Positions 10,254 through 33,180 of a stretch of DNA of 45,242 bases are shown piece by piece. The translations under genes and the position numbers were made by a program. The notes under the pieces were generated by a model. The model was not told where the DNA came from. It searched no databases and saw nothing but the letters and a program-made list of their open reading frames with translations. This stretch comes from an uncultured Bacteroidales bacterium (GTDB lineage: Bacteria > Bacteroidota > Bacteroidia > Bacteroidales > UBA932), in the NCBI GenBank assembly GCA_900318955.1, contig ONMJ01000015.1:1-45242 (forward strand). Direction: 5' to 3'. Each line of letters opens with the position of its first letter. Positions within the stretch are counted from its first letter, which is position 1.

Positions 10254-10284
10254 TTTGATAGTTATTTTGGAATATTTATATTTG
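10254..10284 (+). promoter_or_regulatory. Consensus Bacteroidota promoter of the first SusCD unit
   Basis: TTTG at 10254-10257, a 19-nt spacer and TATATTTG at 10277-10284 match the primary sigma factor consensus exactly. It begins 4 nt after the acyltransferase stop and drives the phosphodiester glycosidase gene at 10328. No further promoter is visible before SusC, so the glycosidase, SusC, SusD and GLUG genes likely form one transcript. Confidence 0.8.
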
Positions 10285-10327
10285 CAAAAAACATTAAATA
10301 CTTAAAACAAAGTATAGGAGACAGCTT

Positions 10328-11335
10328 ATGAAAAAGCTAGCATTCGCTATTCTTCTCGTTTCATTTTTGTCATGCGGTGGGAATAACGAGTATTCAACAG
10401 AGTTACCCCCGCCTCCCGGAATGGAGCAGGAGGAGCAAAAGCCATCAGGCAATATTGACGACACCCCGACCGGGGAAATCCGAGCCAAGACCCCCGGAAG
10501 CGACTGGACTAAAACCGAGATATCGGAGGGCCTTGTCATGTGGAGCTTCAAGGGCAAGAGCCCTATTACCGCCACCAATCAGATTATTGATATAGTCGAA
10601 GTGGACATGAATCTCCCTCGTTACACCTTCCATGTGAAGTTCCATGATCCGGATTCTGTGTCCAACATTTTCAAGTCCACCGGAGCGGTAGTTGCAACAA
10701 ATGCCGGCTATGGCCCCGTCTCGGTATTCATCAAAGACCACGGAATTGTCAAGTCTTCGATAGACCTTACCATGGCGACTGACCGCAATGAGCCGGAATA
10801 TGCCTGGTGCAATGACGGCGGAGTATATGGGCGCGCAGACGGAAGAGCCACGATTGAGCATACCCGAAAGGGACTTACCCTTCAGGAGTTCAGCCAGTAC
10901 AATCTGAAAAGGACAGAGCCGAATATAGTGACGAGCGCACCGATGCTGATTGACAATTTCGATCCGGTCGGTTACAAGCTTGACCCGGATGCGTCGACCC
11001 TGCACAAAGATTATATCTCTCTCCAGAATAATGTCAACCCCAGAACAGCTGTAGCGGTGACAGACAATAACCATATGATTTTCGCAGTCGTGAACGGCCG
11101 ATACACCAATGCCGCGGGTATGACAATCGCTCAGCTTACAAAGCTTTTGGTAGAGGAATTCAATCCGCAGTATGCAATCAATATGGACGGAGGCGGCTCG
11201 TCCACCCTTTGCGTAAAGGGCCTCGGAGACCCCGTCAACAACGTGGTTAATTATCCCAACGACAACAAACGTTTCGACCATTATGGTCAAAGGAAACGCC
11301 GGACAACATTCTATATAATGGATTCCGGCAAATAA
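10328..11335 (+). CDS. Phosphodiester glycosidase (NAGPA-domain) lipoprotein
   Basis: A 335-residue lipoprotein (Cys16, SFLSC) with the phosphodiester glycosidase domain. This is the family of the mammalian 'uncovering enzyme', which removes GlcNAc from GlcNAc-phosphate-mannose. Visible family motifs are VVATNAGYG near 120, NPRTAVAVT near 238 and NMDGGGSST near 288. A Shine-Dalgarno-like AGGAGA lies at the expected distance. As the first gene after a consensus promoter and 47 nt ahead of SusC, it appears to be part of the glycan-utilisation operon. It would cleave a sugar-phosphodiester bond at the cell surface or in the periplasm. The exact substrate is not deducible. Confidence 0.88.
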   Translation: MKKLAFAILLVSFLSCGGNNEYSTELPPPPGMEQEEQKPSGNIDDTPTGEIRAKTPGSDWTKTEISEGLVMWSFKGKSPITATNQIIDIVEVDMNLPRYTFHVKFHDPDSVSNIFKSTGAVVATNAGYGPVSVFIKDHGIVKSSIDLTMATDRNEPEYAWCNDGGVYGRADGRATIEHTRKGLTLQEFSQYNLKRTEPNIVTSAPMLIDNFDPVGYKLDPDASTLHKDYISLQNNVNPRTAVAVTDNNHMIFAVVNGRYTNAAGMTIAQLTKLLVEEFNPQYAINMDGGGSSTLCVKGLGDPVNNVVNYPNDNKRFDHYGQRKRRTTFYIMDSGK

Positions 11336-11382
11336 TAAGTAATGTGATTAACTATACTAACCAAACAACAAAAATTACAAGT

Positions 11383-14300
11383 ATGAGGATTATTCAAAAG
11401 ATTGTCTTTTCACTGTTCGCGCTTGTGGCAGCCGTATCGGTTTCAGCCCAGACGAGGACACTGAATGGCAAGGTAGTCGACGCCGAAGGAGCAGGAGTTC
11501 CCGGTGTTGCCGTCGTACAAGCAGGGACGGCAAACGGCACTATGACAGCCTCTGACGGTACTTTCTCCTTAAGCGTTCCGCAAGGAGAGGTAACAGTTGA
11601 GATTTCGAGTATCGGCTATGTCTCCCAGACTATTGCAGTCGAGCCGAACCGGACCTCTCTTTCTGTCGTCCTTCATGAAGACAACGAACTTCTCGACGAG
11701 GTCGTTGTCGTCGGTTACGGTACGCAGAAAAAGGTCAACCTCACCGGAGCTATTTCAACAGTGGCCGCTTCTGATCTCCAGAATCGCTCTTCGCTGGATG
11801 TGAAACGCATGCTCCAGGGTTCGGTTCCAGGTCTCAACATTACCACATCATCCGGACGTCCCGGACAGGCCGCGGGCATCAACGTGCGTGGTCTTACCTC
11901 CATCAACGGCGGTTCTCCGCTCGTGCTGATCGACGGCGCTGAGGGTGATCTCGAAAGGATCAACCCTATGGACGTCGAGAGCATCTCTGTCATCAAGGAC
12001 GCTTCCTCCGCAGCTATCTACGGAGCGCGCGCAGCCTACGGAGTTATTCTCGTTACCACAAAGAGCGGAGGTGATACCTCCGACGGTTCGGCAACAGTTA
12101 CCTACAGCGGCCGTTTCGGCTGGACTTCGCCGACCACTTCGACCGATTTCGAGACTCGCGGATACTACTCCGTATACATCAACAACCTCTTCTACAGCTC
12201 TTATGCGGGAGTTCCCACTGCGATTTATTCAGACGAGCAGATGAAGGAACTCTGGATCCGTCGTAACGATGTAACCGAGAATCCCGCTCGTCCCTGGGTC
12301 GTTGTCGATCAGGAAGGCGGAAGGGATGTGTACAGCTATTATGCCAATACCGACTGGTGGCATTATTTCTTCAATGATAATAAGCCGACTTCGAGCCATA
12401 GCATAAGCATGAGAGGCGGCACAAAGAAGATGAAATATCTCCTTTCCGCGGGATACAACAACCAGGTAGGTATGCTGGCCATCAACCCTGACACATACAA
12501 TAAGTACAACATCAGGGCAAAGCTGGACTTCCAGGCCAACAAGTGGCTGAGGGTAAGCAACAACACCACCTATTTTACCAGCCGCTATGACTACCATGGC
12601 TACGCCAGCGTCAACAATGATTTCCTCCAGACAACCGTGGGTGATTTCGCATCTATCCCGACGCATAATCCGGACGGAACCCTCGTCGCCACGAACAGGC
12701 ACTATAATTCCCCTGTCGCCAACGCTATCATTGCAAACCCCGGGAATAAGCACTACAACCAAATTCAGGAGCTCTCCACTATTACGGAGGCTACAATCAC
12801 CCCGTTCAAGGATCTTGTAATAAAGGCGAACTACAACTATGTGTTCTACTTTAACCGCTATGTCCACCGTATCACTAATTCCCATTACTCTCAGTACCCG
12901 GGAATCATAGAGACCTATAGCACAGGAGCGCATGGCGCTGACCATCTCACAGAAGACCTTGACGACAACTACTATCAGCAGGCAAATATATATGCAACCT
13001 ATACCAAGTCTTTCGGCAATCACAACTTCAAACTTATGGGCGGAGCCAACTGGGAGACGAAGTATCTCAAGACCGTGACGGTGGATGGTTACTATCTGCT
13101 CTCTGAAGAACTCAACGACCTCAACCTCGTCGGCGCTGACCCTTCGAGCGAAGCAGGCGACAAGAGAATAGAGGCCACCGGCGGACAGAACAGATATACC
13201 CTGCTGGGTTATTTCGGCCGTTTCAATTACGACTATGCCGGCAAGTATCTCTTCGAGTTTAACGCCCGTTATGACGGTACTTCCCGTTTTGCTCAGGCCC
13301 ATCGCTGGGGTTTCTTCCCTTCCGCATCTGTCGGTTGGAGAATCTCCGAGGAGCCATTCTTCGAGCCGCTCAGGGCTACGGTCAATAATGCCAAGATCCG
13401 CTTCTCCTATGGACAGCTCGGCAACCAGAATGTCGGTTACTACGACTATATCCGCAAGATTTCCCTCGGTACGGGCAGTTATCTGTTCGAGGGCGGCAAG
13501 CCGCTTGTGTCTTCCATTGGCGCGCCGGTAGCTTCCGACCTCACCTGGGAGGTTGCTACTCATTACAATCTGGGTCTCGATATCGACATGTTCGCGAACA
13601 AGCTCAATTTCTCCGGCGAGGCATACATCCGTGACACCAAGGGAATGTTGGTTTCCGGCAATGACCTTCCTTCGACCTACGGAGCGAGCGCTCCCAAAAA
13701 GAATTCGGCTGACCTCAGGACCAAGGGATATGAGCTTTCACTCAGCTGGAGGGATTCGTTCCAGATGGCCGGCAGTCCGTTTAATTACGGCATAAAAGTC
13801 GTCTTCAGCGACTATATTTCGCATATTACCAAGTTCGATAACCCGACCAAGTCCCTTTCCAAGTCCTACTATGAGGGACAGACCTACGGAGAGATCTGGG
13901 GCTATAGGATCGGAGGGCTTTTTGCAACGGATGAAGAAGCTGCAAGTTATGAGGTTGATCAGACATCGGTCAATACGATTATCAATGCTTCTGCGGGAAG
14001 CGACAACGGTCTGAAGGCAGGAGACCTCAAATATCTCGACCTCGATCATAATAATAAGATCAGTCTCGGCGCCAATACTGTCGACGATCCGGGAGACCGC
14101 CGCATCATAGGAAACAGCCAGCCGCGCTACAACTATGGTGTCACGCTGAATGCCGCCTGGGCCGGATTTGACTTCTCAGTCTTCTTCCAGGGGATAGGCC
14201 GTCGCGATTGGTATCCTCCTCAGGATGCCCGTCTGTTCTGGTTCGTGTACATGAGGCCTTATGCTACCTACATCCCGAAAGACTTCCAGAATATGTATTG

Positions 14301-14643
14301 GACCGAAGAGAATCCCAACGCTTACTTCCCGAGGGCCCGCGGCTATGTCGCGCTGGGTACCGGGCAGGACCGTGAGCTTTCGGCATACAACGACAGGTAC
14401 CTCCAGAATATCGGCTACTGCCGTCTGAAGAACCTCACAGTCGGATACACCCTTCCCAAGAAGCTGACAAATCTGATCTCAATGGATAATGTCCGCTTCT
14501 ACTTCACGGGAGAGAACCTCCAGTACTGGTCTCCATTAAAGAAATATGGCAAATACATGGATCCTGAAATGGCCGCGGTGAATAATTCTTCCGTGTATCC
14601 ATGGCAGAAGACATTCATGTTCGGCATAGATGTCACATTCTAA
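11383..14643 (+). CDS. SusC-like TonB-dependent outer-membrane transporter (copy 1)
   Basis: A 1086-residue SusC/RagA-type transporter that imports oligosaccharides with its SusD lid. It has a signal peptide ending near SVSAQ, a carboxypeptidase-like beta domain (about 25-100), the plug with VVVGYGTQKK and SVIKDASSAAIYGARA, and a 22-strand barrel ending in aromatic FMFGIDVTF. There is no STN domain, so it is not coupled to a FecR anti-sigma factor. The start is set at 11383 (ATGAGGATT), which begins the signal peptide; an upstream GTG at 11344 would add an unlikely polar extension. The plug is very similar to copy 2, which indicates duplication of the pair. Confidence 0.96.
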   Translation: MRIIQKIVFSLFALVAAVSVSAQTRTLNGKVVDAEGAGVPGVAVVQAGTANGTMTASDGTFSLSVPQGEVTVEISSIGYVSQTIAVEPNRTSLSVVLHEDNELLDEVVVVGYGTQKKVNLTGAISTVAASDLQNRSSLDVKRMLQGSVPGLNITTSSGRPGQAAGINVRGLTSINGGSPLVLIDGAEGDLERINPMDVESISVIKDASSAAIYGARAAYGVILVTTKSGGDTSDGSATVTYSGRFGWTSPTTSTDFETRGYYSVYINNLFYSSYAGVPTAIYSDEQMKELWIRRNDVTENPARPWVVVDQEGGRDVYSYYANTDWWHYFFNDNKPTSSHSISMRGGTKKMKYLLSAGYNNQVGMLAINPDTYNKYNIRAKLDFQANKWLRVSNNTTYFTSRYDYHGYASVNNDFLQTTVGDFASIPTHNPDGTLVATNRHYNSPVANAIIANPGNKHYNQIQELSTITEATITPFKDLVIKANYNYVFYFNRYVHRITNSHYSQYPGIIETYSTGAHGADHLTEDLDDNYYQQANIYATYTKSFGNHNFKLMGGANWETKYLKTVTVDGYYLLSEELNDLNLVGADPSSEAGDKRIEATGGQNRYTLLGYFGRFNYDYAGKYLFEFNARYDGTSRFAQAHRWGFFPSASVGWRISEEPFFEPLRATVNNAKIRFSYGQLGNQNVGYYDYIRKISLGTGSYLFEGGKPLVSSIGAPVASDLTWEVATHYNLGLDIDMFANKLNFSGEAYIRDTKGMLVSGNDLPSTYGASAPKKNSADLRTKGYELSLSWRDSFQMAGSPFNYGIKVVFSDYISHITKFDNPTKSLSKSYYEGQTYGEIWGYRIGGLFATDEEAASYEVDQTSVNTIINASAGSDNGLKAGDLKYLDLDHNNKISLGANTVDDPGDRRIIGNSQPRYNYGVTLNAAWAGFDFSVFFQGIGRRDWYPPQDARLFWFVYMRPYATYIPKDFQNMYWTEENPNAYFPRARGYVALGTGQDRELSAYNDRYLQNIGYCRLKNLTVGYTLPKKLTNLISMDNVRFYFTGENLQYWSPLKKYGKYMDPEMAAVNNSSVYPWQKTFMFGIDVTF

Positions 14644-14661
14644 TCAGAGGAGGAAAGAACA

Positions 14662-16446
14662 ATGAAAAATATATTCAGAACAATCACCCTCTTTGTCGCG
14701 GCTGCTTCTTTCTGCGCCTGCGCCGACATCCTTAACGAATACCCCCTCGATGATCTGAGTCCGGATTCCTTCTTCTCTTCGGATGAGGAACTGATGAGCT
14801 TCAGCAACAACTTCTATAGCATGATTTCGGCTCCCTTTGCCGAAGAGGCCGACCTCTATGTTCCCGCATCTCTTTCCGAGGAAGTGCGTGGCGCCCGTCA
14901 GGTCCCCAACTCGGGCGGAGGCTGGACATGGACGACCCTTCGCAATGTCAATACGATGCTTGGTAATCTGGATCATTGCAAGGACGAGGCGGTCAGGACC
15001 AAATATGAAGCCCTCGGACGTTTCTTCCGCGCTTATTTCTATTTCGACAAGGTGAAACGCTTCGGCGACGTCCCCTGGTACGACAAAGAGCTCGGGTCTG
15101 CCGATGAGGATCTGTACAAGCCTCAGGATTCCCGCGAGCTTGTGATGCAAAATGTCATTGCGGACCTTGATTTCGCAGTCGCCAACCTCACTTCGACAAA
15201 GTCCACGGTACGTGTCACCAAGTGGACGGCGCTTGCCCTTAAGAGCCGCGCCTGCCTGTATGAAGGCACTTTCCGCAAGTACCACGCAGGCGATCCGTTT
15301 ACAGCAACCCTCCCTGCTGATGCCAAGCCCTATAGCTGGTATCTCGAGCAGGCTGCCGAAGCGGCGTCAGAGTTTATCGCTTCAAGCGGTTACATCATCT
15401 ACAATAAGGGGACATTCAATACGAATTACCGCTATCTCTTCTCAACGAACAACGCTACCGACGAGGAAGTAATTCTGGTGCGCCATTATGACGCTGCATA
15501 CGGAGCTACTCATACCGCCGGAGCCAATTACACCACTCCGACCCTCGGAAGGCAGGGAATGAGCTTTAAGTATTTTGCCAGCTACCTCATGAAGGACGGC
15601 ACCCGTTTCACCGACAAGGCCGGATGGGAAAGCATGCTGTTCGTGGATGCGGCAAAGAACCGCGACCCTCGTCTTGCCCAGTCTATCCGTACTCCTGGAT
15701 TCAAGGTTGACGGAGAAGAGACCTTCACCGCTCCCGAAATCAAGAATTCCGGCACCGGTTTCCAGCCGACAAAGTATGTGACCACAAGGGAGCAGATGAA
15801 ATATAATCTTACCGATATAGACCTCATCTCCTTCCGTGCCGCAGAGGTGTATCTCAACTATGCTGAGGCCAAGGCTGAACTCGGGACCCTTACGCAGGGA
15901 GACCTTGATCTTTCTCTCAACAAGCTTCGCGACAGAGTCGGTATGCCTCACCTGAACATGGCTGACGCCAATGCCAATCCTGATCCGTTCCTTACCAATA
16001 CGGAATGGGGAGGCTTCAGGAATGTCAGCGGCGCCAACAAGGGAGTGATTCTTGAAATACGCCGCGAGAGGGCTGTGGAGCTCGGTCAGGAAGGCTTCCG
16101 CTATGATGATATCATGCGCTGGAAGGAAGGAAAAACCTTCGAGGCTCAGTTCTATGGAATGTACTTCCCGGGGGCAGGAAACTATGATCTTGACGGAGAC
16201 GGTACTGTAGATGCATGCCTGTATTCGGGCGATAAACCTTCTGTTAATGCCAAAGATTACTTCGAGATCGGTAAGGATGTGACCCTCAGCGGAACATCCA
16301 GCGGGTATCTGAATCCCCACAAGAGCATCAAGTGTACCTGGAATGAGGATAAGGATTATCTCTATCCTGTTCCGATTTATGACCGCCAGCTTACAGATGG
16401 CGCCCTCAAGCAGAATCCGGGCTGGAACGACAATTTAACTTTTTAG
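14662..16446 (+). CDS. SusD-like glycan-binding lipoprotein (copy 1)
   Basis: A 594-residue SusD/RagB-family surface lipoprotein and partner of the upstream SusC. It has a signal peptide with Cys18 or Cys20 and NEYPLDDLSPDSFF at the N-terminus. The helical TPR-like core includes RFFRAYFYFDKVKRFGDVPWYD, and a C-terminal EIRRERAVELGQEGFRYDDIMRWK segment is characteristic of the family. AGAGGAGG lies 7-14 nt before the ATG, and the gap after SusC is 18 nt. It is strongly similar to SusD copy 2 (for example GARxVPxSGGGW in both). Confidence 0.96.
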   Translation: MKNIFRTITLFVAAASFCACADILNEYPLDDLSPDSFFSSDEELMSFSNNFYSMISAPFAEEADLYVPASLSEEVRGARQVPNSGGGWTWTTLRNVNTMLGNLDHCKDEAVRTKYEALGRFFRAYFYFDKVKRFGDVPWYDKELGSADEDLYKPQDSRELVMQNVIADLDFAVANLTSTKSTVRVTKWTALALKSRACLYEGTFRKYHAGDPFTATLPADAKPYSWYLEQAAEAASEFIASSGYIIYNKGTFNTNYRYLFSTNNATDEEVILVRHYDAAYGATHTAGANYTTPTLGRQGMSFKYFASYLMKDGTRFTDKAGWESMLFVDAAKNRDPRLAQSIRTPGFKVDGEETFTAPEIKNSGTGFQPTKYVTTREQMKYNLTDIDLISFRAAEVYLNYAEAKAELGTLTQGDLDLSLNKLRDRVGMPHLNMADANANPDPFLTNTEWGGFRNVSGANKGVILEIRRERAVELGQEGFRYDDIMRWKEGKTFEAQFYGMYFPGAGNYDLDGDGTVDACLYSGDKPSVNAKDYFEIGKDVTLSGTSSGYLNPHKSIKCTWNEDKDYLYPVPIYDRQLTDGALKQNPGWNDNLTF

Positions 16447-16458
16447 CGACTAGAAACC

Positions 16459-18135: not shown

Positions 18136-18157
18136 TAATCCGGAAATACTCGATAAC

Positions 18158-18190
18158 GGAGGTCGGCCCTGTGGTCGACCTCCATTTTTT
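18158..18190 (+). terminator. Rho-independent terminator of the first SusCD unit
   Basis: The arms GGAGGTCG (18158-18165) and CGACCTCC (18176-18183) pair over 8 bp around a 10-nt loop, followed by A and a run of T to 18190. It lies 22 nt after the GLUG gene stop. Confidence 0.85.
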
Positions 18191-18224
18191 GTACTCCGAC
18201 CAAATATTTATAAAAAATATTTAC

Positions 18225-18232
18225 TATATTTG
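18225..18232 (+). promoter_or_regulatory. -7 box (TATATTTG) for the second SusCD unit
   Basis: TATATTTG matches TAnnTTTG, 92 nt before the second SusC start, in an A/T-rich gap of 189 nt. No TTTG lies at the usual upstream distance, so the -33 region is weak or activator-dependent. The leader to the start codon would be roughly 85 nt. Confidence 0.5.
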
Positions 18233-18324: not shown

Positions 18325-21300
18325 ATGCGTTTCAATTGTTTGATTATGACATTGTTCTTGTCATTGGCAGGAACAGTGGGCGCGTTTGCGCAGCAGAGGA
18401 CGGTAACGGGAACGGTGCGCGACACAAAGCAAGAGCCTGTTGTCGGCGCCGGTGTTCTCATTGAGGGTACTACCCGGGGAACGGTTACGGGTGTCGACGG
18501 ATCTTTCTCCCTCGCAGTACCCGCAGGAACCGTTATCCTTGACGTATCTTCGCTGGGATATTCTCCTCAAAAAGTTACAGTCAGTCCGGGCCAGGCCGTC
18601 GTTTCCGTTATCCTCGAAGAGGATGCGATGAATCTTGAAGGAACGGTTGTCGTCGGTTATGGCGTCCAGAAAAAGATCAACCTTACCGGCGCTATCTCGT
18701 CAGTTACTTCGGAGACACTCGAAAACCGCGTAGCTCCGACCCTTACCCACATGCTTCAGGGTTCTGTCCCCGGTCTCAACGTCACTACAAGTTCAGGCCG
18801 CCCGGGTAACACCGCTTCTATCAATATCCGAGGTATCAACTCAATCAACGGCGGTTCTCCGCTTGTCCTCGTCGATGGCGTAGAAGGAGATCTTTCCCGT
18901 GTCAATCCTGCTGACGTCGAGTCAATATCAGTCATTAAGGATGCGTCAGCAGCAGCAATCTACGGAGCCCGTGCTTCTTTCGGTGTTGTCCTTGTTACAA
19001 CCAAGACCGGAGCCTCCAAGGACGGTTATGCCCGAGTTCAGGTCTCCAGCCGCATGGGTTGGCAGGAGCCGACAACGTCGACTGACTTTGAGACCCGCGG
19101 TTACTATTCCGTCTATCTCAATGACCTTTTCTTCCGTGCATACAACGGTAAGAACTATACCACCTATACTGAAGAAGATATGGCTCAGCTCTGGGCTCGT
19201 GTCAATGATACTGTCGAAAATCCCGAGCGCCCCTGGGTCATGATTGACCAGAGAGCAGGCCGCGACACCTATGTGTACTATGCCAACACGGACTGGTGGC
19301 ATGAGCTCTTCCAGGATCGCCGCCCGAATATGCAGCACAGTGTCTCCCTGAGCGGCGGCACAGAGCATGTCAAGTACTTCCTCTCCGGGGCCTACAACTA
19401 TGAAGAGGGTCTTTTCAGAAGGAATACCGATAAGCTCAACAAGTACAACTTCCGCTCTAAACTCGTATTTGATATCAACAAGTGGATGAGTGTTTCCAAC
19501 AACACCTCTTTCTACAAATATCAATACACCTACCCCGGAGCCAGCGGCGTCAATACTGTCTTCTCCCTGATGACAGTCCATGCTCTCGCTTCCTATCCGG
19601 ATCACAACCCTGACGGATCTTCAATCGGTTTCACCTCTTTCGCCGACAATAACTTCGTAATGGACGGCTTCCTTACCGTTCTCGACGAGCCCAACTATGG
19701 CAACAAGGATGAAAAAACCGACTTCAGGACAACCACAGAGCTTGTCCTAAAGCCCTTCAGGTCCCTTGAGGTCCGTGCTAACTTTACATATGCTCTTGAC
19801 CAGAACAGATATTCCAGCAGGGCACTGGTTACCAGCTATTCCCAGTATCCTGGTGAAATGCTTCTTGTCAACAACAGCCGTTCAATCGACCGTCTGACAG
19901 AGACATATGAGACCCACAACTACTATTCGACCAATGTCTACGCGACCTGGACGGAGACATTCGCCCAGAATCACCACGTCAAGCTGATGGGCGGATTCAA
20001 CTGGGAGACAAAGCATCTTAAGGACAACAAGGCGATAGGTTATTATCTTATGAGCCAGACGCTCTCGGACCTTGACCTTGTCGGTGCCGATGCAGACGGA
20101 AATAAGAGAATGGAAGTGTCCGGAGGCCAGAACGAATATGCTATCGAGGGTTTCTTCGGCCGTCTCAACTATGACTACAAGGAAAAATATCTCTTCGAGG
20201 TCAGCGGACGCTATGACGGATCTTCCCGTTTTGCCGCCGATCACCGCTGGGGCTTCTTCCCATCCGCTTCTGCGGGATGGAGAATCTCCGAGGAAGAGTT
20301 CTTTGCTCCTCTAAAGACAACTGTCAACAATTTCAAGATCCGTTATTCCTACGGAGCCCTTGGTAACCAGCAGGTAGGGTATTACGATTATATCCGTAAG
20401 GTTTCGATTGATACCGGCAGCTATCTTTTCGGTACCGGCGCCAATCCTACTATTGCTACAATCGGCGCACCGGTCGCTTCGAACCTTACATGGGAGAGAA
20501 CTCTCCAGCATGACCTTGGTCTCGACCTTGCCTTCCTCGGCAACCGCCTGACCTTCACCGCAGATGGTTATATCCGCGACACGAAGGACATGCTTACGGC
20601 AGGAAAGACCCTTCCGGCTGTCTATGGCGCTTCTTCTCCTAAGATGAACGCAGCAGACCTCCGCACCAAGGGATACGAGCTCCAGCTCGTCTGGAGGGAC
20701 GGATTCAGCCTTGCAGGCAAGCCGTTCAACTATAGCGTTACGGCTTCCTTCAGCGACTACCTTACAAAGATTACCAAGTTCGACAACCCGAATAAGTCTC
20801 TTGCCCAGAGTTACTACGAAGGTATGACATGGGGAGAGATTTGGGGCTACTACACTGATGGCCTTTTCAAGGACGATGCAGAAGCAGCGGCTTATCCTAT
20901 TGACCAAAAGTATGTCAACAATGCCATCAACGGTTCCGCGGGAAGTGAAAGAGGAATCCGCGGAGGAGACCTTAAGTTCCGCGATCTCGACGGAGATAAC
21001 AAGATTGGCATCGGAGAGAATACTGTAGATAAACCCGGAGACCGCCGTATCATCGGTAACAGTCAGCCTCGTTACAACTACGGTCTCAACCTTGCCTTCC
21101 AGTGGATGGGCTTCGACTTCTCAATCTTCTTCCAGGGTATTGGCAAGCTCGACTGGGCTCCTGCAACCAATAACGTCCTCTTCTGGGGACCTTACGCCCG
21201 TCCGTATGCTACCTTGATCCCGAAGGATTTCCACAAGATGATCTGGAGCGAAGACAACCCGGATGCCTACTATCCGCGTCCGAGAGGTTATGTCGCCCTC

Positions 21301-21579
21301 GGTTCCAACCGTGAGTTGACTGTCCCTACAGACAGATATCTCCAGAATATCGCCTACTGCCGTCTTAAGAATCTCAATGTCGGATACACCATCCCGAAGA
21401 ATCTGACCAGCAAGGTAGGCATCGAGAATATCCGCTTCTACTTCTCCGGCGAAAACCTCGCCACGTGGTCCGGTATCCACTCCGACTATATCGATCCTGA
21501 AATGGCCAAACTGAATGAGACCAACCGTATCTATCCATGGCAGAAGTCTTATATGTTCGGCATCGATCTTACATTCTAA
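18325..21579 (+). CDS. SusC-like TonB-dependent outer-membrane transporter (copy 2)
   Basis: A 1084-residue SusC/RagA-type transporter. It has a signal peptide ending GAFAQ, a carboxypeptidase-like domain (about 25-100), a plug with VVVGYGVQKK and SVIKDASAAAIYGARA, and a barrel ending MFGIDLTF. It lacks an STN domain. Long segments match copy 1 closely in the plug and parts of the barrel, while extracellular-loop segments differ, as expected of paralogues handling related but not identical ligands. It starts a new transcription unit after the terminator at 18158-18190. Confidence 0.96.
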   Translation: MRFNCLIMTLFLSLAGTVGAFAQQRTVTGTVRDTKQEPVVGAGVLIEGTTRGTVTGVDGSFSLAVPAGTVILDVSSLGYSPQKVTVSPGQAVVSVILEEDAMNLEGTVVVGYGVQKKINLTGAISSVTSETLENRVAPTLTHMLQGSVPGLNVTTSSGRPGNTASINIRGINSINGGSPLVLVDGVEGDLSRVNPADVESISVIKDASAAAIYGARASFGVVLVTTKTGASKDGYARVQVSSRMGWQEPTTSTDFETRGYYSVYLNDLFFRAYNGKNYTTYTEEDMAQLWARVNDTVENPERPWVMIDQRAGRDTYVYYANTDWWHELFQDRRPNMQHSVSLSGGTEHVKYFLSGAYNYEEGLFRRNTDKLNKYNFRSKLVFDINKWMSVSNNTSFYKYQYTYPGASGVNTVFSLMTVHALASYPDHNPDGSSIGFTSFADNNFVMDGFLTVLDEPNYGNKDEKTDFRTTTELVLKPFRSLEVRANFTYALDQNRYSSRALVTSYSQYPGEMLLVNNSRSIDRLTETYETHNYYSTNVYATWTETFAQNHHVKLMGGFNWETKHLKDNKAIGYYLMSQTLSDLDLVGADADGNKRMEVSGGQNEYAIEGFFGRLNYDYKEKYLFEVSGRYDGSSRFAADHRWGFFPSASAGWRISEEEFFAPLKTTVNNFKIRYSYGALGNQQVGYYDYIRKVSIDTGSYLFGTGANPTIATIGAPVASNLTWERTLQHDLGLDLAFLGNRLTFTADGYIRDTKDMLTAGKTLPAVYGASSPKMNAADLRTKGYELQLVWRDGFSLAGKPFNYSVTASFSDYLTKITKFDNPNKSLAQSYYEGMTWGEIWGYYTDGLFKDDAEAAAYPIDQKYVNNAINGSAGSERGIRGGDLKFRDLDGDNKIGIGENTVDKPGDRRIIGNSQPRYNYGLNLAFQWMGFDFSIFFQGIGKLDWAPATNNVLFWGPYARPYATLIPKDFHKMIWSEDNPDAYYPRPRGYVALGSNRELTVPTDRYLQNIAYCRLKNLNVGYTIPKNLTSKVGIENIRFYFSGENLATWSGIHSDYIDPEMAKLNETNRIYPWQKSYMFGIDLTF

Positions 21580-21597
21580 ATCATGGAGGAACACGAT

Positions 21598-23334
21598 ATG
21601 AAAAAGAATATAATACTGATTATAGCAACCGCCCTTGCCGTCGCAGCCTGCGACCTTGACAAGTTCCCTCTTGCTTCGCTTTCGCCGGACAGCTATTTCT
21701 CTACGGCAAGCGAAATGGATGCGTTTGCCAATAATTTCTATCCCGATCTTCCCGGAACCTCCGTATACGAGGAAGAGTCCGACATGGTCATCAAGATGGG
21801 TCTTACCAACGAGATGAGAGGAGCCCGTACCGTTCCCGGATCCGGAGGCGGCTGGAGCTGGACCGCTCTTCGTAAATATAACACCTTGATTGATTTTTCG
21901 GGGAACTGCGAAGACATCAACGTCCGCAACGAATATGTTGCCGTCGCGCGTTTCTTCCGCGCATACTTCTATTTTGAGAAAGTAAAGAGATTCGGAGACG
22001 TTCCATGGTATGATACCCAGCTCGGCTCTGCTGACGAGGCTCTATATAAACCGCGCGACAGCCGCGAACTGGTGATGTCCAACGTTGTGGCAGACCTTGA
22101 TTTTGCAATCGAGCATCTTCCTTCCCAGCACTCCCTCTACAAGGTGACAAAGTGGACTGCAATGGCTCTTAAGACCCGTGCATGCCTCTTCGAGGGAACC
22201 TTCCGTAAATACCACAACATCTCTCTGGAAGGCCATACCTGGCAGTGGTATCTCGAGCAGGCCGCTGCAGCAGGAGAGGAATTCATTGCAACCAGCGGCT
22301 ATTCCATCTATACCGGGAGCCCTCAGCCCTACCGTGATCTCTTCGCTGCGACAGATGCCATCGGCACAGAAATCATCCTCGCCCGCGACTATGATCTGGC
22401 CCTGAACGTCAAGCACAATGGTACATATTATACCCTCGGTAACTATGGCAACCCGGGTATGACCCGCAAGATGTTCTGCACCTATCTGATGGCCGACGGT
22501 ACCCGTTTCACTGACAAAGAAGGCTGGCAGACAATGAGCTTTGTCGATGAGACAAAGAACAGAGATCCTCGTCTCGGCCAGTCCATCAGGATTCCGGGCT
22601 ACAAGAGAATCGGCTCAGATAAGACAGAAGCTCCCAGCCTTGCTGACTCAGAGACCGGTTATCAGCCTACCAAGTACATGCAGGGTGTTGACCTTGGCGT
22701 AGACCTCTATGGAGCTTCCTACAATGACCTTCCGCTCTTCCGCGCAGCCGAGGTATACCTCAACTTCGCTGAGGCAAAGGCAGAACTCGGGACAATCACC
22801 CAGGCCGACCTCGATAAGTCTATCCGTCTTCTTCGCGCCCGTGTCGGCATGCCGAACATCAATCTTGAGCAGGCTAATGCCAATCCAGATCCTTATCTTC
22901 TCGCCGAGGAGACAGGCTATCCGAACGTGACCGGGCCCAATGCCGGAATTATCCTTGAGGTCCGCCGCGAGCGCACCGTAGAGCTCTTCGATGAGAACTT
23001 CCGCTACTATGATCTCATGCGCTGGAAAAACGGGCAGGCCTTCAAGCATCAGAATCTCGGACTCTATTTCCCGGGTCCCGGCAACTATGATCTCGATGGT
23101 GACGGCGTTATTGACCATGCTCTCTACGAGGGTTCAGCTCCTACCGGACTCCCGGCGACGACAATCCTTCGTAAGATTGGAACGGATATCTTCCTGACCG
23201 AAGGCAATAAGGGATATGTACTGACCAATCCGACCGATCCGGGCTCATGGGACGAGGACCGCGACTACTACTATCCGATACCGACTGATGAGCTCAGTCT
23301 GAATACCAATCTTGAACAGAACCCCAACTGGTAA
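21598..23334 (+). CDS. SusD-like glycan-binding lipoprotein (copy 2)
   Basis: A 578-residue SusD/RagB-family lipoprotein with Cys18 (VAAC). Family segments include FFRAYFYFEKVKRFGDVPWYD and EVRRERTVELFDENFRYYDLMRWK. The start at 21598 is chosen over an in-frame ATG at 21583 because GAGGA just upstream then acts as a ribosome-binding site and the signal peptide starts cleanly with MKKN. The stop overlaps the next start (TAATG at 23332-23336), which suggests translational coupling to the EEP lipoprotein. Confidence 0.96.
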   Translation: MKKNIILIIATALAVAACDLDKFPLASLSPDSYFSTASEMDAFANNFYPDLPGTSVYEEESDMVIKMGLTNEMRGARTVPGSGGGWSWTALRKYNTLIDFSGNCEDINVRNEYVAVARFFRAYFYFEKVKRFGDVPWYDTQLGSADEALYKPRDSRELVMSNVVADLDFAIEHLPSQHSLYKVTKWTAMALKTRACLFEGTFRKYHNISLEGHTWQWYLEQAAAAGEEFIATSGYSIYTGSPQPYRDLFAATDAIGTEIILARDYDLALNVKHNGTYYTLGNYGNPGMTRKMFCTYLMADGTRFTDKEGWQTMSFVDETKNRDPRLGQSIRIPGYKRIGSDKTEAPSLADSETGYQPTKYMQGVDLGVDLYGASYNDLPLFRAAEVYLNFAEAKAELGTITQADLDKSIRLLRARVGMPNINLEQANANPDPYLLAEETGYPNVTGPNAGIILEVRRERTVELFDENFRYYDLMRWKNGQAFKHQNLGLYFPGPGNYDLDGDGVIDHALYEGSAPTGLPATTILRKIGTDIFLTEGNKGYVLTNPTDPGSWDEDRDYYYPIPTDELSLNTNLEQNPNW

Positions 23335-24251: not shown

Positions 24252-24265
24252 TATTTAGCAGAATC

Positions 24266-26290
24266 ATGAAAACACACAGAATATTAGCGATTATCGGATT
24301 GTCCGCCCTTCTTGCTGCCGCCTGTACTCAGGAGTACGACTATCAGAAGAAGCAAAAGATCAGTACGCCCGCCAATTTCACCATCACCATTGATTCGATG
24401 GAAGATACGGTAGTGCTGATGTCCCCGCGGACCAAGTCCTACACAGTCAAGGTCACCGCGAACTCTGTTGCCGATGATATCCTGACGCTTACAATAGGCT
24501 CAGACCCTACAAAGATCGCAGCTTATAACCGTGCCCATGGGACATCTTTCGACGCGATTCCGGGCGACGCTTTCTCTCTTACGAAGGACCAGCTGATCCT
24601 TCCCCGTTACAACAAAGTCTCCTCGACGACAGTGCTGACCCTCAACAGTGCAGCAATGCCGGATGACAATACGGCCCACCTGCTGCCCCTCACGATTACA
24701 AAGATCGAGGGTACCAGCCCGACTTCACTGAGCCAGACCGACAGTACGTTCTTTATCCTTTTCCGCCGCAGGGCTCTGCCTGCCTCCGGTTTCGAGCTTG
24801 GTACAGGTACCGAAGCCGATCCTTACATCATCCGCAACCAGACCGAACTTACTTGCGTCCCAAGGGCGCTTAAGAGCGGCCAGACGACCTTCTTCAAGAT
24901 GGAGGCTGACGTGGATCTGAATAGCTATGAAGATTGGGTTCCTGCAAACTCTGCAAGCCCTTATGACATGGCTATCGACTTTGACGGTGGCGGCCATAAG
25001 ATCAGTAACTTCTTCAGCAACTCCGAGTCTATGCCGAGCTTTGTCGGTGTTCTTGTCGGAAGCATCCACGATGTTACATTCGAGAATCCGGTGCTTGATG
25101 TCAACGCTTCCCGTGCCGGTCTTCTCGGAGCCCAGGCCGGAACTGCTGACGGAGCAAAGGCGGATATTAAGAATGTCAATGTCACCGGCATGAAGATTAA
25201 TGTCGTCGGTACGACAGAAGGCGTCGGAGGTCTTGTCGGACAGGCCTACAACACAACCTTCAGCAAGGTGAAAGTAGGAGCAAACATTATCGATGCTGAC
25301 GACGACCACAAGGTTCCGAGCTCAATCGGCGGTCTTGTCGGTGTTGTATGGAGCGGATGCCTCTTCTCCGAGTGCGAGACAAGCGGAGCGCTTCATGCCA
25401 ACCAGCGAGGCGGAGGCCTTATCGGTTATATCCGCGATACTGCAGAGGACATTAAGGTCGAGAAGTGCTCATCTTCAGTGGAAATTGTCAACGAGAGCCA
25501 GAATGCAGGAGGTCTTATCGGACTTGCCTACGCTCCGAAGCTTACTGTCACAGACAGCCACGCTACAGGAGACGTTACTACTCTTGCAAGCCACTATGCT
25601 GGCGGTCTTATCGGATCGATGAACGGAACATCCACAATCCAGCGCTGCTACGCAACCGGTAACATCCTTTGTAACGGTGGTAACCATAACGGCGGTCTTA
25701 TCGGAAATGCAGCCCGTACAACGGGAGACTCCCTGATTGAGGACTGCTATGCGACAGGAAATGTGACCTTGAAGGCTTCCAATGGACGTATGGCCGGCGG
25801 TCTTGTCGGAGTTATCGAGAATAAGACCGGCATCACCATCCGTCGCTGCTACGCTTCCGGAGACATTAAGAGCGAGTACTCGGTAGTCGGTGGTCTTGTC
25901 GCATTTGCAAAGTCGGGTACTTTGACCGACAACATCAATTTCACTCTCGAGAACTCAATTGCTTGGAACAAGGTCATCTCTTGTCCTACCGCCGCTCCTA
26001 CGACATGGAGTTCGGGAGCAGTCATCGCTGTTTCCAACGTTTACAACACGTTGACAAACAACTATCGCCGTCCGGATATGACCTTCTCTGACGGATCAGA
26101 TTTCGGTCTCTTTGACAGTCCGAATGTATCTGCTTCCGCTCCGCTCAAGGATGCAGAAAAGGTAACTTATTACTATCCATATCACGGCATCGCCGCTCCT
26201 GCGGGATCCACAATCTCTTCCGTCGCCAAGACTCTTGGGTGGCCGACTGATATCTGGGATCTCTCCGGAGATGCTCCGAAGCTTAAATAA
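24266..26290 (+). CDS. DUF1735 plus GLUG-repeat lipoprotein (copy 2)
   Basis: A 674-residue lipoprotein (Cys20, LAAAC). A DUF1735 module occupies about 35-160 and a GLUG domain starts near 175 (DPYIIRNQTELT, EADVDL, FDGGGHKISNF). At least eight repeats carrying GGLVG, GGLIG or close variants follow, spaced roughly 30-50 residues apart, with CYATGN or CYASGD motifs between them. The C-terminal PYHGIAAPAG and LGW are shared with copy 1. It has more repeats than copy 1, so the array has probably expanded or contracted since duplication. It occupies the usual position of a SusE/F-like surface protein and ends the second unit before a strong terminator. Confidence 0.86.
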   Translation: MKTHRILAIIGLSALLAAACTQEYDYQKKQKISTPANFTITIDSMEDTVVLMSPRTKSYTVKVTANSVADDILTLTIGSDPTKIAAYNRAHGTSFDAIPGDAFSLTKDQLILPRYNKVSSTTVLTLNSAAMPDDNTAHLLPLTITKIEGTSPTSLSQTDSTFFILFRRRALPASGFELGTGTEADPYIIRNQTELTCVPRALKSGQTTFFKMEADVDLNSYEDWVPANSASPYDMAIDFDGGGHKISNFFSNSESMPSFVGVLVGSIHDVTFENPVLDVNASRAGLLGAQAGTADGAKADIKNVNVTGMKINVVGTTEGVGGLVGQAYNTTFSKVKVGANIIDADDDHKVPSSIGGLVGVVWSGCLFSECETSGALHANQRGGGLIGYIRDTAEDIKVEKCSSSVEIVNESQNAGGLIGLAYAPKLTVTDSHATGDVTTLASHYAGGLIGSMNGTSTIQRCYATGNILCNGGNHNGGLIGNAARTTGDSLIEDCYATGNVTLKASNGRMAGGLVGVIENKTGITIRRCYASGDIKSEYSVVGGLVAFAKSGTLTDNINFTLENSIAWNKVISCPTAAPTTWSSGAVIAVSNVYNTLTNNYRRPDMTFSDGSDFGLFDSPNVSASAPLKDAEKVTYYYPYHGIAAPAGSTISSVAKTLGWPTDIWDLSGDAPKLK

Positions 26291-26300
26291 ACACAGAACG

Positions 26301-26346
26301 AGGAGGCCGGATTAAAGGTTTTCCGGCCTCCTTTTATTTTTTTTTG
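26301..26346 (+). terminator. Strong Rho-independent terminator just upstream of the second EEP gene
   Basis: The arms AGGAGGCCGGA (26301-26311) and TCCGGCCTCCT (26322-26332) pair over 11 bp around a 10-nt loop, followed by a T-rich tract up to 26345. The next gene starts at 26352, so the poly-T tail almost touches the start codon. Read-through or an unseen promoter must supply the downstream pair. Confidence 0.88.
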
Positions 26347-26351
26347 TCCTT

Positions 26352-27251
26352 ATGAAAATAGCTTATCCGATTATTCTTATTGCAGCAGGATGCATGATCA
26401 CTCTGGCTTGTGCCTGCGGATCAGAAACAAAGAAAGAGAATATTGAAGACGGCCCGTACAAATGGGATAAGGAAACAGAAGTAAAGCCTGTAGAGATTGA
26501 TACAGACAAGACATACTTCCCTAAGGCAGACGGGGCCTTCCGTATCATGTCCTACAATGTGGGCGCCCTTCATAAATACATCAGCGTCTTGACAGACAAT
26601 GTCAATATGATCGCGGCTATGATCAACGAGGCCCAGGCCGACGTAGTCGGTCTCAATGAGCTGGACAGCTGCAACGCCCGGTGCAACCAGTACCAGCTCA
26701 AACTGCTTGCTCAGGCTTCCGGAAAGTGGGATTATTATTATGGAAAGACTCTGGATTACAGGGGAGGGGCATATGGCAACGGGGTCATGACTCCGGCAGG
26801 CACCAAGGTCCATAATGTCTATCGCCTTCATTTCCAGAATACGACAAATTATGAGAATCGCGGAATGATTATTATCGAGACCGACAAATACGTCCTTGGT
26901 GTGACCCATCTGGACCATTCGTCTGAGGATTATATCCAGTCCCAGATCTCCGAGATCAACTCTTGGTTCCAGGCAAAGTATCGTAATGCCGATATTCCTG
27001 TTTTCTTCTGCGGAGACATGAATGCCAAACCGGGCTCAGAGGCGATTCAGGCCATTGAATCCAGTTGGGATATCATTTCCAACACCAAAGAGCTGACGAC
27101 GGCAAACAACACCATAGACTACGTCTTCCATTACAAGAAATCCGCTCCCGTCGAGGTCCTTGGGGCCCATACTTTGAACCGTTTCTACAACGGCGACGCC
27201 AAGACGGCCTCCGACCATCTTCCGATCTACGTAGATGTAAAACTTAAGTAG
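26352..27251 (+). CDS. EEP-fold phosphoesterase lipoprotein (copy 2)
   Basis: A 299-residue exported EEP-domain protein, probably a lipoprotein (Cys20 or Cys22 in LACAC), clearly paralogous to copy 1. Motifs in order are SYNVGALHKY, GLNELDS, RGGAYGNGV, THLDHSS, CGDMNAKPGS, IDYVFHYKKSAP and SDHLPIYVD, so the catalytic set is complete. The start lies about 6 nt after the T tract of a terminator and lacks a Shine-Dalgarno sequence, which is unusual. It is followed after 16 nt by the GH92 gene and probably acts with it. Substrate specificity is not readable from sequence. Confidence 0.86.
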   Translation: MKIAYPIILIAAGCMITLACACGSETKKENIEDGPYKWDKETEVKPVEIDTDKTYFPKADGAFRIMSYNVGALHKYISVLTDNVNMIAAMINEAQADVVGLNELDSCNARCNQYQLKLLAQASGKWDYYYGKTLDYRGGAYGNGVMTPAGTKVHNVYRLHFQNTTNYENRGMIIIETDKYVLGVTHLDHSSEDYIQSQISEINSWFQAKYRNADIPVFFCGDMNAKPGSEAIQAIESSWDIISNTKELTTANNTIDYVFHYKKSAPVEVLGAHTLNRFYNGDAKTASDHLPIYVDVKLK

Positions 27252-27267
27252 ATACAGCTAGCAGTAA

Positions 27268-29274
27268 ATGAAAAAGAATTGCCTCGCGGCAGCGATAATC
27301 TTATTGATCTCCGCATGTAACAGTACCCATGAAGTCAATCTCTTCATGGGTACTTCAGGAGATCACGGACAGGTTTCTCCGGGGGCTCAGGTCCCCTTCG
27401 GGATGATTTCGGTGTGCCCGGACAGCGACCCTCCACAGCATTGCGGCTATGATTGGGCCGTACCTGAGATATCAGGGGTGTCGATCACAAGGGTTTCCGG
27501 GGTCGGCTGCAGCGGAGGTGGGGGAGATGTTCGCATCCGTCCATGCCCCGAGAGCGAGCCCGTTTCAATAGTCAAGGGAACAGAAAAAGCCGTTCCGGGC
27601 TATTACGAGACCCTGTTTTCGAACGGGACCAGGGGATCATTTACTGCAACGGTGAATACAGCTTTGGAGAGGTACGATTTCCATCCCACCTCTTCGAAGG
27701 TATTTCATATCGACTTTTCGTCCTCTGTAATAAAGCGCTTGTCCGGAATCAAGCCTAGCGGGTATACGATAAAGGACGACAGGACGATCGAAGGCTGGAC
27801 GGTTTCTCCTACTGTCTGTGCAAGAGGTAGTTACAAACTCTATTTCACCCTCGTTTCAGATACTCCCTTTAAAGTAGTCGGAACCGAGGAGAAAGCCGTT
27901 GATATCGAGTTCCCTGAGAAGACCCGCTCCGTTGAGATCCGAATAGGGACTTCGACGGTGGACGAAAAGAGCGCAAGAGACGCTTACGGACAGTGGAAGA
28001 ATTTGAGTTTTAATAAGATACGCCGAATGGCGGCGAAGTCCTGGGAGGAAAAACTCTCGAAGATAGAGGTAGAGGGCGGCACAGAGGAAGACCGCATAAT
28101 TTTCTACACTTCGCTTTATCGTCTCTATCTAAGCCCCATGGTCGCCCAGTCCCCTGACGGAAGACATATAGGGACCGATGGAAACATCTATGACAACGAA
28201 GGTTACACCTTCTACGGAAGCTGGAGCATGTGGGATACCTTCAGGACAAAATTCCCTCTTCTGGTGCTCTTGGAGGGGGAGGCCTCGTCTGACATCTGCA
28301 ACTCTCTTATTGACCTTTTCAAGACCGGAAAGAACCAGTGGACAACCCCTTACGAGGCGGCGCCATCTGTCCGTACAGAACATTCAGTAATTACTATTCT
28401 CGATGCCGTAGCCAAAGGCGTCCAAGGAATTAATCTCGAAAAAGGCTACGAAGGGATGGTGAAAGAGGCCGAGAATGACCTTCCCATGACTAAGCCGGAC
28501 CAGAGGCTTGAAAGTTCTTACGACCTTTGGGCCCTAGGGAAGATTGCAGAGATTCTAGGCAGGACGGAGGATGCCAAGAAATACTCGGAAAGAGCTGATT
28601 CTCTTTTTCTTGCAACATGGGTCCCGATTTTTATGGAGATTACTCCGGAGTTTACTCTCATGAAAGAAAACGGCCTCTATCAAGGCTCCAAATGGCAGCA
28701 TCGCTGGAACGCTCCCCATTTCATCGACAAGATGATAGACCTTGTCGGAAGGGACAGTCTTGAGAGCCAGCTCGAGGAGTTTTTCGAGAAGCGACTATAC
28801 AATCAAGGGAACGAGCCCGATATCCATACTCCGTTCATTTTCAATCGTTTCGGCCGGCCGGATATGACTGCAGCAGTGGTGAATTCTTATCTTACGGACG
28901 ATAAGATGGTCCATATCTACGGGGGTAACGCTGAGTATCCTGAGCCATTTGTCGGAAGGGCTTTCAGGAATGCACCGGACGGATACGCCCCGGAAATGGA
29001 TGAGGATGACGGAGCCATGAGTTCATGGTATATTTTCGCCTCTTCCGGTCTCTATCCCCTTCTTGTCGGCTCTGACGAATACGAGGTCTTTTCTCCTCAT
29101 TTTGATAAAATCGTTATCCGCTCCGGGAAGGCTCCCTTTACTATCCTGACGAGGAATCGTAAACATCTTACCGATAAAGCAAAAGCGGTCACTCTGAACG
29201 GAAAACCCCTCGAAGGGACGGCAATCAAGCACTCTGACATAGCGAGTGGAGGAGAATTACTTTTTTCGTTCTGA
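27268..29274 (+). CDS. GH92 family alpha-mannosidase lipoprotein
   Basis: A 668-residue predicted lipoprotein (Cys17, LISAC) of glycoside hydrolase family 92, calcium-dependent exo-alpha-mannosidases. Visible features are the N-terminal VNLFMGTSGDHGQVSPGAQ, PFGMISVCPDS, the SGVGCSGGGGD segment, GNEPDIHTPF near 513 and DEDDGAMSSWYIF near 577-590. The last differs from the common GNDDxGQMSAWY version, having DEDDGAMSSW. Length is somewhat below the usual 700-770 residues. The family includes members acting on mannose linked through phosphodiesters, which fits the phosphoesterases next door. It is followed immediately by a promoter for the next gene. Confidence 0.92.
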   Translation: MKKNCLAAAIILLISACNSTHEVNLFMGTSGDHGQVSPGAQVPFGMISVCPDSDPPQHCGYDWAVPEISGVSITRVSGVGCSGGGGDVRIRPCPESEPVSIVKGTEKAVPGYYETLFSNGTRGSFTATVNTALERYDFHPTSSKVFHIDFSSSVIKRLSGIKPSGYTIKDDRTIEGWTVSPTVCARGSYKLYFTLVSDTPFKVVGTEEKAVDIEFPEKTRSVEIRIGTSTVDEKSARDAYGQWKNLSFNKIRRMAAKSWEEKLSKIEVEGGTEEDRIIFYTSLYRLYLSPMVAQSPDGRHIGTDGNIYDNEGYTFYGSWSMWDTFRTKFPLLVLLEGEASSDICNSLIDLFKTGKNQWTTPYEAAPSVRTEHSVITILDAVAKGVQGINLEKGYEGMVKEAENDLPMTKPDQRLESSYDLWALGKIAEILGRTEDAKKYSERADSLFLATWVPIFMEITPEFTLMKENGLYQGSKWQHRWNAPHFIDKMIDLVGRDSLESQLEEFFEKRLYNQGNEPDIHTPFIFNRFGRPDMTAAVVNSYLTDDKMVHIYGGNAEYPEPFVGRAFRNAPDGYAPEMDEDDGAMSSWYIFASSGLYPLLVGSDEYEVFSPHFDKIVIRSGKAPFTILTRNRKHLTDKAKAVTLNGKPLEGTAIKHSDIASGGELLFSF

Positions 29275-33159: not shown

Positions 33160-33180
33160 ATCAAGGTAACTATCAAAATA

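What the first reader, a model, noticed from the sequence alone, without database searches (positions are those of the whole stretch)
10254..29274. Glycan-utilisation locus enriched in phosphoester and phosphodiester enzymes
Two SusCD pairs share the locus with a phosphodiester glycosidase of the uncovering-enzyme family, two complete EEP-fold phosphoesterases and a GH92 alpha-mannosidase; a secreted metallophosphoesterase lies a few genes upstream. Seen: gene order, promoter-first position of the phosphodiester glycosidase, and coupled starts. Known: GH92 enzymes remove alpha-mannose, and the uncovering enzyme cleaves sugar-phosphate-mannose. Inferred: the substrate is a phosphorylated mannose glycan such as yeast phosphomannan or a GPI-type glycan, with phosphate trimming as a central step.
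Basis: partly seen in the sequence, partly recalled or inferred. Interest (0 to 1): 0.7.

Follow-up and report, generated by a model that had tools for sequence, protein, structure and literature searches.

The report
Phosphoglycan utilisation locus with acid-less GH92
A Bacteroidales-type bacterium from an animal-gut lineage carries two neighbouring glycan-uptake gene sets whose enzymes all look built to cut sugar-phosphate bonds, including a mannosidase relative that lacks the acid residue used on ordinary sugar bonds, so it probably feeds on phosphate-decorated (mannose) glycans.

Summary
The gene inventory is right. The key new fact: the GH92 is not an ordinary alpha-mannosidase. Its catalytic-acid position is Gln472, not Glu. 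That Gln is shared by 79 of 80 named homologues and by CcMan5, the GH92 reported to act on Man-PO4-Man phosphodiesters; 22 of 22 other GH92s compared keep Glu. CcMan5 is also the best sequence and fold match and groups with this clade. No ordinary acid-competent glycosidase was found in the locus: one phosphodiester glycosidase (NAGPA), one acid-less GH92, two intact EEP phosphoesterases.

Against one fixed pathway: the region is two units split by the strongest terminator-like hairpin. Relatives carry unit A alone (one genome) or unit B alone (six), with the GH92 unlinked. The full set was seen only in the window. EEPs are not enriched around these GH92s, nor significantly around SusC in this genome, and sequence does not tell the EEP substrate. 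For a link: 3 of 6 unit-B genomes hold a Gln-GH92 elsewhere, against 22 of 397 family genomes, and one has NAGPA pieces beside unit B.

Verdict: phosphorylated-glycan use is the best reading, mannosyl-phosphate plausible, substrate unproven. New variant of a known kind (PUL).

The parts
10254..10284 (+). Bacteroidota-type promoter (-33 TTTG, N19, -7 TAnnTTTG) before NAGPA; start of unit A
   Evidence: exact pattern match; the consensus itself is recalled
10328..11335 (+). NAGPA phosphodiester glycosidase, lipoprotein-like (Cys16)
   Evidence: PF09992 79.7 bits; NAGPA structure 6pki at 1.4e-10 in a profile search
11344..14643 (+). SusC1 (start may be the ATG at 11383)
   Evidence: TIGR04056 872.6 bits; sequence
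14662..16446 (+). SusD1
   Evidence: PF07980
16459..18135 (+). DUF1735 (BT_3987-like_N) lipoprotein a, probable surface glycan-binding protein
   Evidence: PF08522; role inferred
18158..18183 (+). intrinsic-terminator-like hairpin ending unit A
   Evidence: 11 pairs and T tail
18325..21579 (+). SusC2; start of unit B
   Evidence: TIGR04056 900.1 bits; Pfam
21583..23334 (+). SusD2
   Evidence: PF07980
23334..24251 (+). EEP1 phosphoesterase lipoprotein
   Evidence: PF03372; motif residues intact
24266..26290 (+). DUF1735 + GLUG lipoprotein b, probable surface glycan-binding protein
   Evidence: PF08522 and PF07581; role inferred
26352..27251 (+). EEP2 phosphoesterase lipoprotein
   Evidence: PF03372; motif residues intact
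27268..29274 (+). GH92 of the acid-less (Gln472) CcMan5-like clade, lipoprotein-like; predicted mannosyl-1-phosphodiester hydrolase

Best explanation
Two adjacent Sus-type uptake units take up a phosphodiester-bearing glycan, most likely with mannosyl-phosphate groups. Surface DUF1735/GLUG and SusD proteins bind it and SusC imports it (inferred from family). NAGPA cleaves sugar-1-phosphodiester caps. The acid-less GH92 cleaves mannose-alpha-1-phosphate caps: a phosphate is a good leaving group, so no general acid is needed, while the Asp-rich motif that carries the general base is kept. The exposed phosphate is then removed by the EEP lipoproteins, as the name of BT3783 (mannosyl-6-phosphatase) suggests for that EEP. 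Shown: gene content, the Gln at the acid site and its clade-wide conservation, the grouping with CcMan5, intact EEP motifs, a terminator-like site between two units. Inferred: every substrate, the order of steps, and that both units serve one substrate.
For: GH92: best solved relative CcMan5, 7.8e-61 single sequence, 6.2e-97 profile, top fold hit 2.1e-47, BT3130 close behind. CcMan5 targets Man-PO4-Man linkages (passages of PMC5930347). Gln at the acid column in 23 of 23 family homologues and 79 of 80 named ones, Glu in 22 of 22 other GH92s. Acid is Glu533 in BT3990; Gln variants of it substantially lower activity on mannobiose (passage of PMC10167667). Tree: CcMan5 plus the Gln clade, 100/99. 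Some homologues sit in mannan-like loci: Glu-, Gln-, Glu-GH92 with SusCD in a row, GH125, D-lyxose isomerase and PfkB kinase. Phocaeicola faecium has Gln-GH92, type I phosphodiesterase and a profile-labelled EEP in a row. L186, in the same subclade, has SusCD-EEP-...-DUF1735-Gln-GH92. Gln-GH92 in 3 of 6 unit-B genomes (G248, G581, G124) against 22 of 397 other family genomes, binomial p 0.003, relatedness not corrected. NAGPA-like pieces beside unit B in G581. No other glycosidase family in the locus at E 0.001.
Against: Units A and B occur apart in relatives and the Gln-GH92 lies elsewhere. Only 4 of 80 named GH92 homologue loci have an EEP in the held flanks and 0 a NAGPA: 5 EEPs in 1249 kb against 11.4 expected at the window genome's density. 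A profile of window-type EEPs alone hits BT3783 at 2e-4, behind 3l1w, a beta-hemolysin and 3teb and level with AP endonucleases; the 3.9e-11 needs L186 and L235 in the profile. Gln variants of BT3990 are not fully dead. CcMan5 has a long branch. The model is poorly resolved at 574-580, within the Asp motif. One clade member (L234) has Glu. No experiment.
Confidence: 0.5

Rival explanations
1. Chance neighbours: unit A (NAGPA) and unit B (EEP) are separate loci for different phosphorylated substrates that happen to be adjacent here, and the GH92 is a late addition to unit B. There is no shared pathway.
For: Terminator-like site between units. Unit A alone in G207, unit B without complete NAGPA or Gln-GH92 in G248, G124, G581, G431, G411, G625. 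In unit B of G248, G581, G431 and G411 further EEPs stand where the window has its GH92. Full set only in the window among 398 family genomes (only the top 3 to 5 candidates a genome were scored).
Against: NAGPA and EEP abut in other cassettes of the genus (G309, G266, G319, G349). L186 pairs SusCD-EEP with the same GH92 subclade. NAGPA-like pieces, 59% identical to the window NAGPA over one stretch, lie next to unit B in G581. Gln-GH92 in 3 of 6 unit-B genomes.
Confidence: 0.3
2. The substrate is a phosphoinositol glycolipid or glycan (GPI, inositol phosphoceramide or similar): EEPs act as inositol-phosphate or phospholipase-C-like enzymes and mannose is one part of it.
For: EEP profile also matches sphingomyelinase-type entries. 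A related NAGPA cassette holds GDSL esterase and histidine phosphatase. Unit B of G248 is followed by Gfo/Idh dehydrogenases and a 3-keto-disaccharide hydrolase.
Against: No lipase, deacetylase or inositol gene found in the window locus. The link rests on relatives, not on this locus.
Confidence: 0.12
3. Ordinary alpha-mannan or N-glycan locus in which the GH92 is a weak mannosidase or a dead paralogue, and the EEPs are nucleases.
For: GH92 family membership; Gln variants of BT3990 keep some activity; EEP profile also matches AP endonucleases.
Against: Gln conserved in 79 of 80 homologues, with the Asp motif and many other residues invariant in 23 of 23, which speaks for selection on an active acid-less enzyme. 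No endo-mannanase or GH125 family found in the locus.
Confidence: 0.08

Closest known systems
CcMan5 / CcGH92_5 of Cellulosimicrobium cellulans (PDB 2xsg, 4aq0)
   Same: GH92 with Gln at the catalytic-acid column; best sequence and fold match; one clade in the tree
   Different: 24-25% identical over the fold alignment; here the gene is a lipoprotein in a Sus-type locus; phosphodiester activity not tested here
Bacteroides thetaiotaomicron mannan PULs with mannosyl-6-phosphatase BT3783 (PDB 4c1r)
   Same: Sus-type loci with GH92 and a phosphatase (BT3783 in MAN-PUL2 is recalled); EEP fold shared
   Different: Those PULs use GH76 and GH99 endo-enzymes (PMC7562712 passages); none found here; window EEPs are only remotely related to BT3783
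Mannose-6-phosphate uncovering enzyme NAGPA (PDB 6pkg, 6pki) and DUF2233 protein 3ohg
   Same: PF09992 domain with the conserved DGGGS and Arg region
   Different: Remote match; the sugar it removes is unknown

Membership tests
Polysaccharide utilisation locus (Sus-type) | adjacent SusC-like and SusD-like genes | tested here: met
   two pairs
Polysaccharide utilisation locus (Sus-type) | linked carbohydrate-active enzymes | tested here: met
   GH92 in unit B; unit A has only NAGPA, a phosphodiester glycosidase
Polysaccharide utilisation locus (Sus-type) | induction by a glycan | not testable with these tools
   no expression data
CcMan5-like mannosyl-phosphodiester GH92 | GH92 fold and both Pfam domains | tested here: met
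CcMan5-like mannosyl-phosphodiester GH92 | Gln instead of Glu at the general-acid site, Asp-rich base motif kept | tested here: met
   which Asp is the base was not assigned here
CcMan5-like mannosyl-phosphodiester GH92 | common clade with CcMan5 apart from Glu-type GH92s | tested here: met
   100/99 support, long-branch warning, 54 rows
CcMan5-like mannosyl-phosphodiester GH92 | hydrolysis of Man-PO4-Man diesters | not testable with these tools
   needs enzyme assay
BT3783-type mannosyl-6-phosphatase (EEP) | closer to 4c1r than to nucleases or sphingomyelinases | tested here: inconclusive
   3.9e-11 with L186/L235 in the profile, 2e-4 and not best without them; fold rank 16
NAGPA phosphodiester glycosidase | PF09992 over its cut-off with conserved DGGGS region | tested here: met
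   79.7 bits against 25; invariant residues
Yeast alpha-mannan PUL | endo-mannanase (GH76/GH99) in the locus | tested here: not met
   no such Pfam family in the ten locus ORFs at E 0.001

The most novel reading that the evidence does not exclude
The window is one instance of a broader class of Sus-type loci for phosphoglycans that contain no acid-competent glycosidase: bonds are broken only at phosphorus or at sugar-1-phosphate positions, by NAGPA, acid-less GH92 and EEP lipoproteins. A related cassette (SusCD-DUF1735-GLUG-NAGPA-GDSL-histidine phosphatase-NAGPA-EEP) occurs in the same genus.
Probability: 0.4. Interest if true: 0.72.

Novelty: new variant of a known kind. Interest (0 to 1): 0.52.

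Why it matters
If right, gut and rumen Bacteroidales hold a widespread GH92 subgroup (80 homologue loci held here, best of 143 found) devoted to mannosyl-phosphate bonds, readable from one residue, and Sus-type loci devoted to phosphoglycans. It would give a testable rule for annotation (Gln versus Glu at the GH92 acid site), new candidates for the uncapping enzymes used to make mannose-6-phosphate on therapeutic enzymes (that use is recalled), and a lead to how charged fungal or other phosphoglycans are eaten in the gut.

Tried and rejected
Genome-wide count of EEP or NAGPA near SusC as proof of enrichment: not significant. EEP enrichment near Gln-GH92 loci: none, fewer than expected. EEP substrate from sequence or fold: undecided. 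Single-sequence PDB searches of the EEPs: EEP1 nothing at 0.001, EEP2 nothing useful even at 1. Metallophosphoesterase as part of the locus: rejected, by distance and an opposite-strand gene. Phage origin of three flanking ORFs: no PHROG match at 0.001. Literature: 10 searches of open-licence papers. In the listings seen (searches listed 30 of 60 and 25 of 249) no title was about phosphodiester-glycosidase PULs or a Gln-type GH92 clade. I read passages only, of PMC5930347, PMC7562712, PMC10167667 and PMC5215778. Tiels 2012, Cuskin 2015 and Zhu 2010 were seen only as citations; their contents beyond those passages are recalled. That Tiels discusses Gln536 is recalled; here Gln536 rests on the alignments.
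Full report
What is there. The ten locus ORFs from 10328 to 29274 are on the + strand: NAGPA, SusC1, SusD1, DUF1735a, SusC2, SusD2, EEP1, DUF1735b with GLUG repeats, EEP2, GH92. NAGPA is preceded by an exact TTTG-N19-TAnnTTTG site at 10254-10284. Between DUF1735a and SusC2 lies a 189-base gap with the best-paired terminator-like hairpin of the region. The metallophosphoesterase (3416-5032) is apart. The window is contig C40 of a 2.40-Mb, 98.9% complete assembly.

The GH92 is the informative gene. Its best solved relative is CcMan5 (profile; fold, with BT3130 close behind), which PMC5930347 (passages) names as the GH92 with 'decapping' activity on Man-PO4-Man linkages. Gln472 of the window protein stands on Gln536 of CcMan5, where BT3130, BT3965 and 7zgm have Glu. 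PMC5930347 gives Glu533 of BT3990, Glu535 of BT3130 and Glu531 of BT3965 as the catalytic acid. PMC10167667 (passages) says that alanine and glutamine variants of Glu533 substantially lower efficiency on mannobiose without fully inactivating the enzyme; the PDB holds an E494Q mutant of an Enterococcus GH92 (7fe2, title only). The Asp-rich motif MDEDDG (577-582) is invariant in 23 of 23; which Asp is the base I did not assign, and the model is weak at 574-580.

How general is it? In 398 genomes of the window's family 23 (own included) have a match at 1e-100 (up to 3 candidates a genome scored), 23 of 23 with Gln. The scan of named genomes found 143 relatives and kept the best 80; its search patterns do not include the acid site. 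There, 79 of 80 clade members have Gln and one, L234, has Glu. The 18 other GH92s of more than 600 aa in those loci and the 4 paralogues in the window's genome all have Glu. A tree of 54 rows (28 of the 80 Gln rows including the window's, 23 Glu rows, 3 solved proteins) puts CcMan5 with the Gln clade at 100/99 and the window protein with L186 and L219 at 98/95; the program warns of CcMan5's long branch.

Neighbourhoods speak both ways. In favour of mannose and phosphate: several relatives (family genus g15, for example G051, G124, G234; also G329 of the window's genus) have three GH92s, the middle one Gln-type, then SusC and SusD. Bacteroides bouchesdurhonensis has GH125, aldose epimerase, Gln-GH92 and a GH127-like gene. 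L219 has PfkB kinase, D-lyxose isomerase, Gln-GH92. Phocaeicola faecium has Gln-GH92, type I phosphodiesterase and an EEP by profile. L186 has SusC, SusD, EEP, PKD/PQQ protein, GDSL esterase, a DUF1735-profile protein, an unscanned 185-aa ORF, Gln-GH92. Against a fixed set: none of the 20 other family loci fetched around the GH92 (of 22 found) shows an EEP or NAGPA by profile (some contigs end early), and of 80 named loci 4 have an EEP and 0 a NAGPA in the held flanks, below the 11.4 EEPs expected at the window genome's density.

Units A and B have separate histories. The only close NAGPA relative in 398 genomes is in G207 (73%; the next are 47% or less), as NAGPA-SusC-SusD-DUF1735 with no EEP or GH92 in it. 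EEP1 relatives at 1e-95 or better (57-83% identity) are in G248, G124, G581, G431, G411 and G625, in loci of SusC, SusD, a DUF1735-profile protein and two to four EEPs, none with a GH92 inside the unit. Three weaker relatives (G251, G171, G044, 56-57% over part of the protein) lie in other gene orders. G431 has a GH92-profile ORF on the other strand upstream, not typed. Unit B of G248 is followed by Gfo/Idh, 3-keto-disaccharide hydrolase and Gfo/Idh. The DUF1735 profile also catches GLUG-only proteins (L185:4823-6964 has only GLUG by Pfam).

Two late checks favour a link. A Gln-type GH92 of 48-53% identity lies elsewhere in 3 of the 6 unit-B genomes, G248, G581 and G124, which are the three most complete; the other three and G207 have only matches of at most 38% identity, and the three whose acid site I could read (in G431, G411, G625) have Glu. 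In the family 22 of 397 other genomes have one; binomial p 0.003, not corrected for relatedness (G248 and G581 may be close). In G581, NAGPA-like pieces in two frames (59% identity to the window NAGPA over residues 238-324) lie next to unit B on the other strand. These support the joint reading but the odds given here were not changed.

NAGPA and EEP meet elsewhere too. Of 20 NAGPA regions fetched (18 by score rank, 2 because a neighbouring EEP had been seen), 9 have SusC and SusD, 15 a DUF1735-profile protein, and 4 an EEP (G319, G349 by rank; G266, G309 chosen for it), each next to a NAGPA. G309 reads SusC, SusD, DUF1735, GLUG, NAGPA, GDSL esterase, histidine phosphatase, NAGPA, EEP. At the window genome's EEP density about 3 of 18 regions of 20 kb would hold one by chance, so 2 of 18 is no enrichment; the evidence is the abutting co-directional order.

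EEP function. Both window EEPs keep the EEP motif residues and a lipoprotein cysteine. A profile with L186 and L235 included finds mannosyl-6-phosphatase BT3783 (4c1r) at 3.9e-11, third best. A profile of 14 window-type EEPs finds it at 2e-4, behind 3l1w, a beta-hemolysin and 3teb and level with AP endonucleases. The fold search gives Bacteroides EEPs first, TDP2 third, BT3783 sixteenth. I call this undecided.

Conclusion. The most economical reading is that all hydrolases of this region act on phosphoesters, with mannosyl-phosphate one likely bond; that both units serve one substrate is about even odds. It is a Sus-type locus with known enzyme kinds in an unusual combination, hence a new variant of a known kind.

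Noticed in passing
L185:80-12908 (G309:C6): Cassette SusC-SusD-DUF1735-GLUG-NAGPA-GDSL esterase-histidine phosphatase-NAGPA-EEP; no glycoside hydrolase among the labelled or scanned ORFs.
   Followed up: partly
L147:1439-7994 (G248:C3): A single ORF of 525 aa holds two EEP domains in tandem, followed by Gfo/Idh, 3-keto-disaccharide hydrolase, Gfo/Idh.
   Followed up: partly
G581:C7:55829-56661: NAGPA-like pieces in two frames next to a unit-B relative, on the other strand; one stretch is 59% identical to the window NAGPA.
   Followed up: no
L235:9989-13943: Phocaeicola faecium: Gln-type GH92, type I phosphodiesterase (PF01663) and an EEP by profile in a row, in a named strain.
   Followed up: partly
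L234:4357: The one clade member with Glu at the acid site (KGIYEGTRWQ), a natural contrast to the Gln rows.
   Followed up: no
L219:26-3775: PfkB kinase, D-lyxose isomerase and Gln-type GH92 side by side, a mannose-use hint.
   Followed up: no
window 29276-29306: Second exact TTTG-N19-TAnnTTTG site, before the 195-aa ORF at 29330-29917 that has no Pfam match.
   Followed up: no
window 33153-36460: Metallo-beta-lactamase-like and heparinase II/III-like ORFs next to each other.
   Followed up: no
whole assembly G000: 22 EEP, 8 NAGPA and 26 SusC matches over cut-off in 2.4 Mb.
   Followed up: partly
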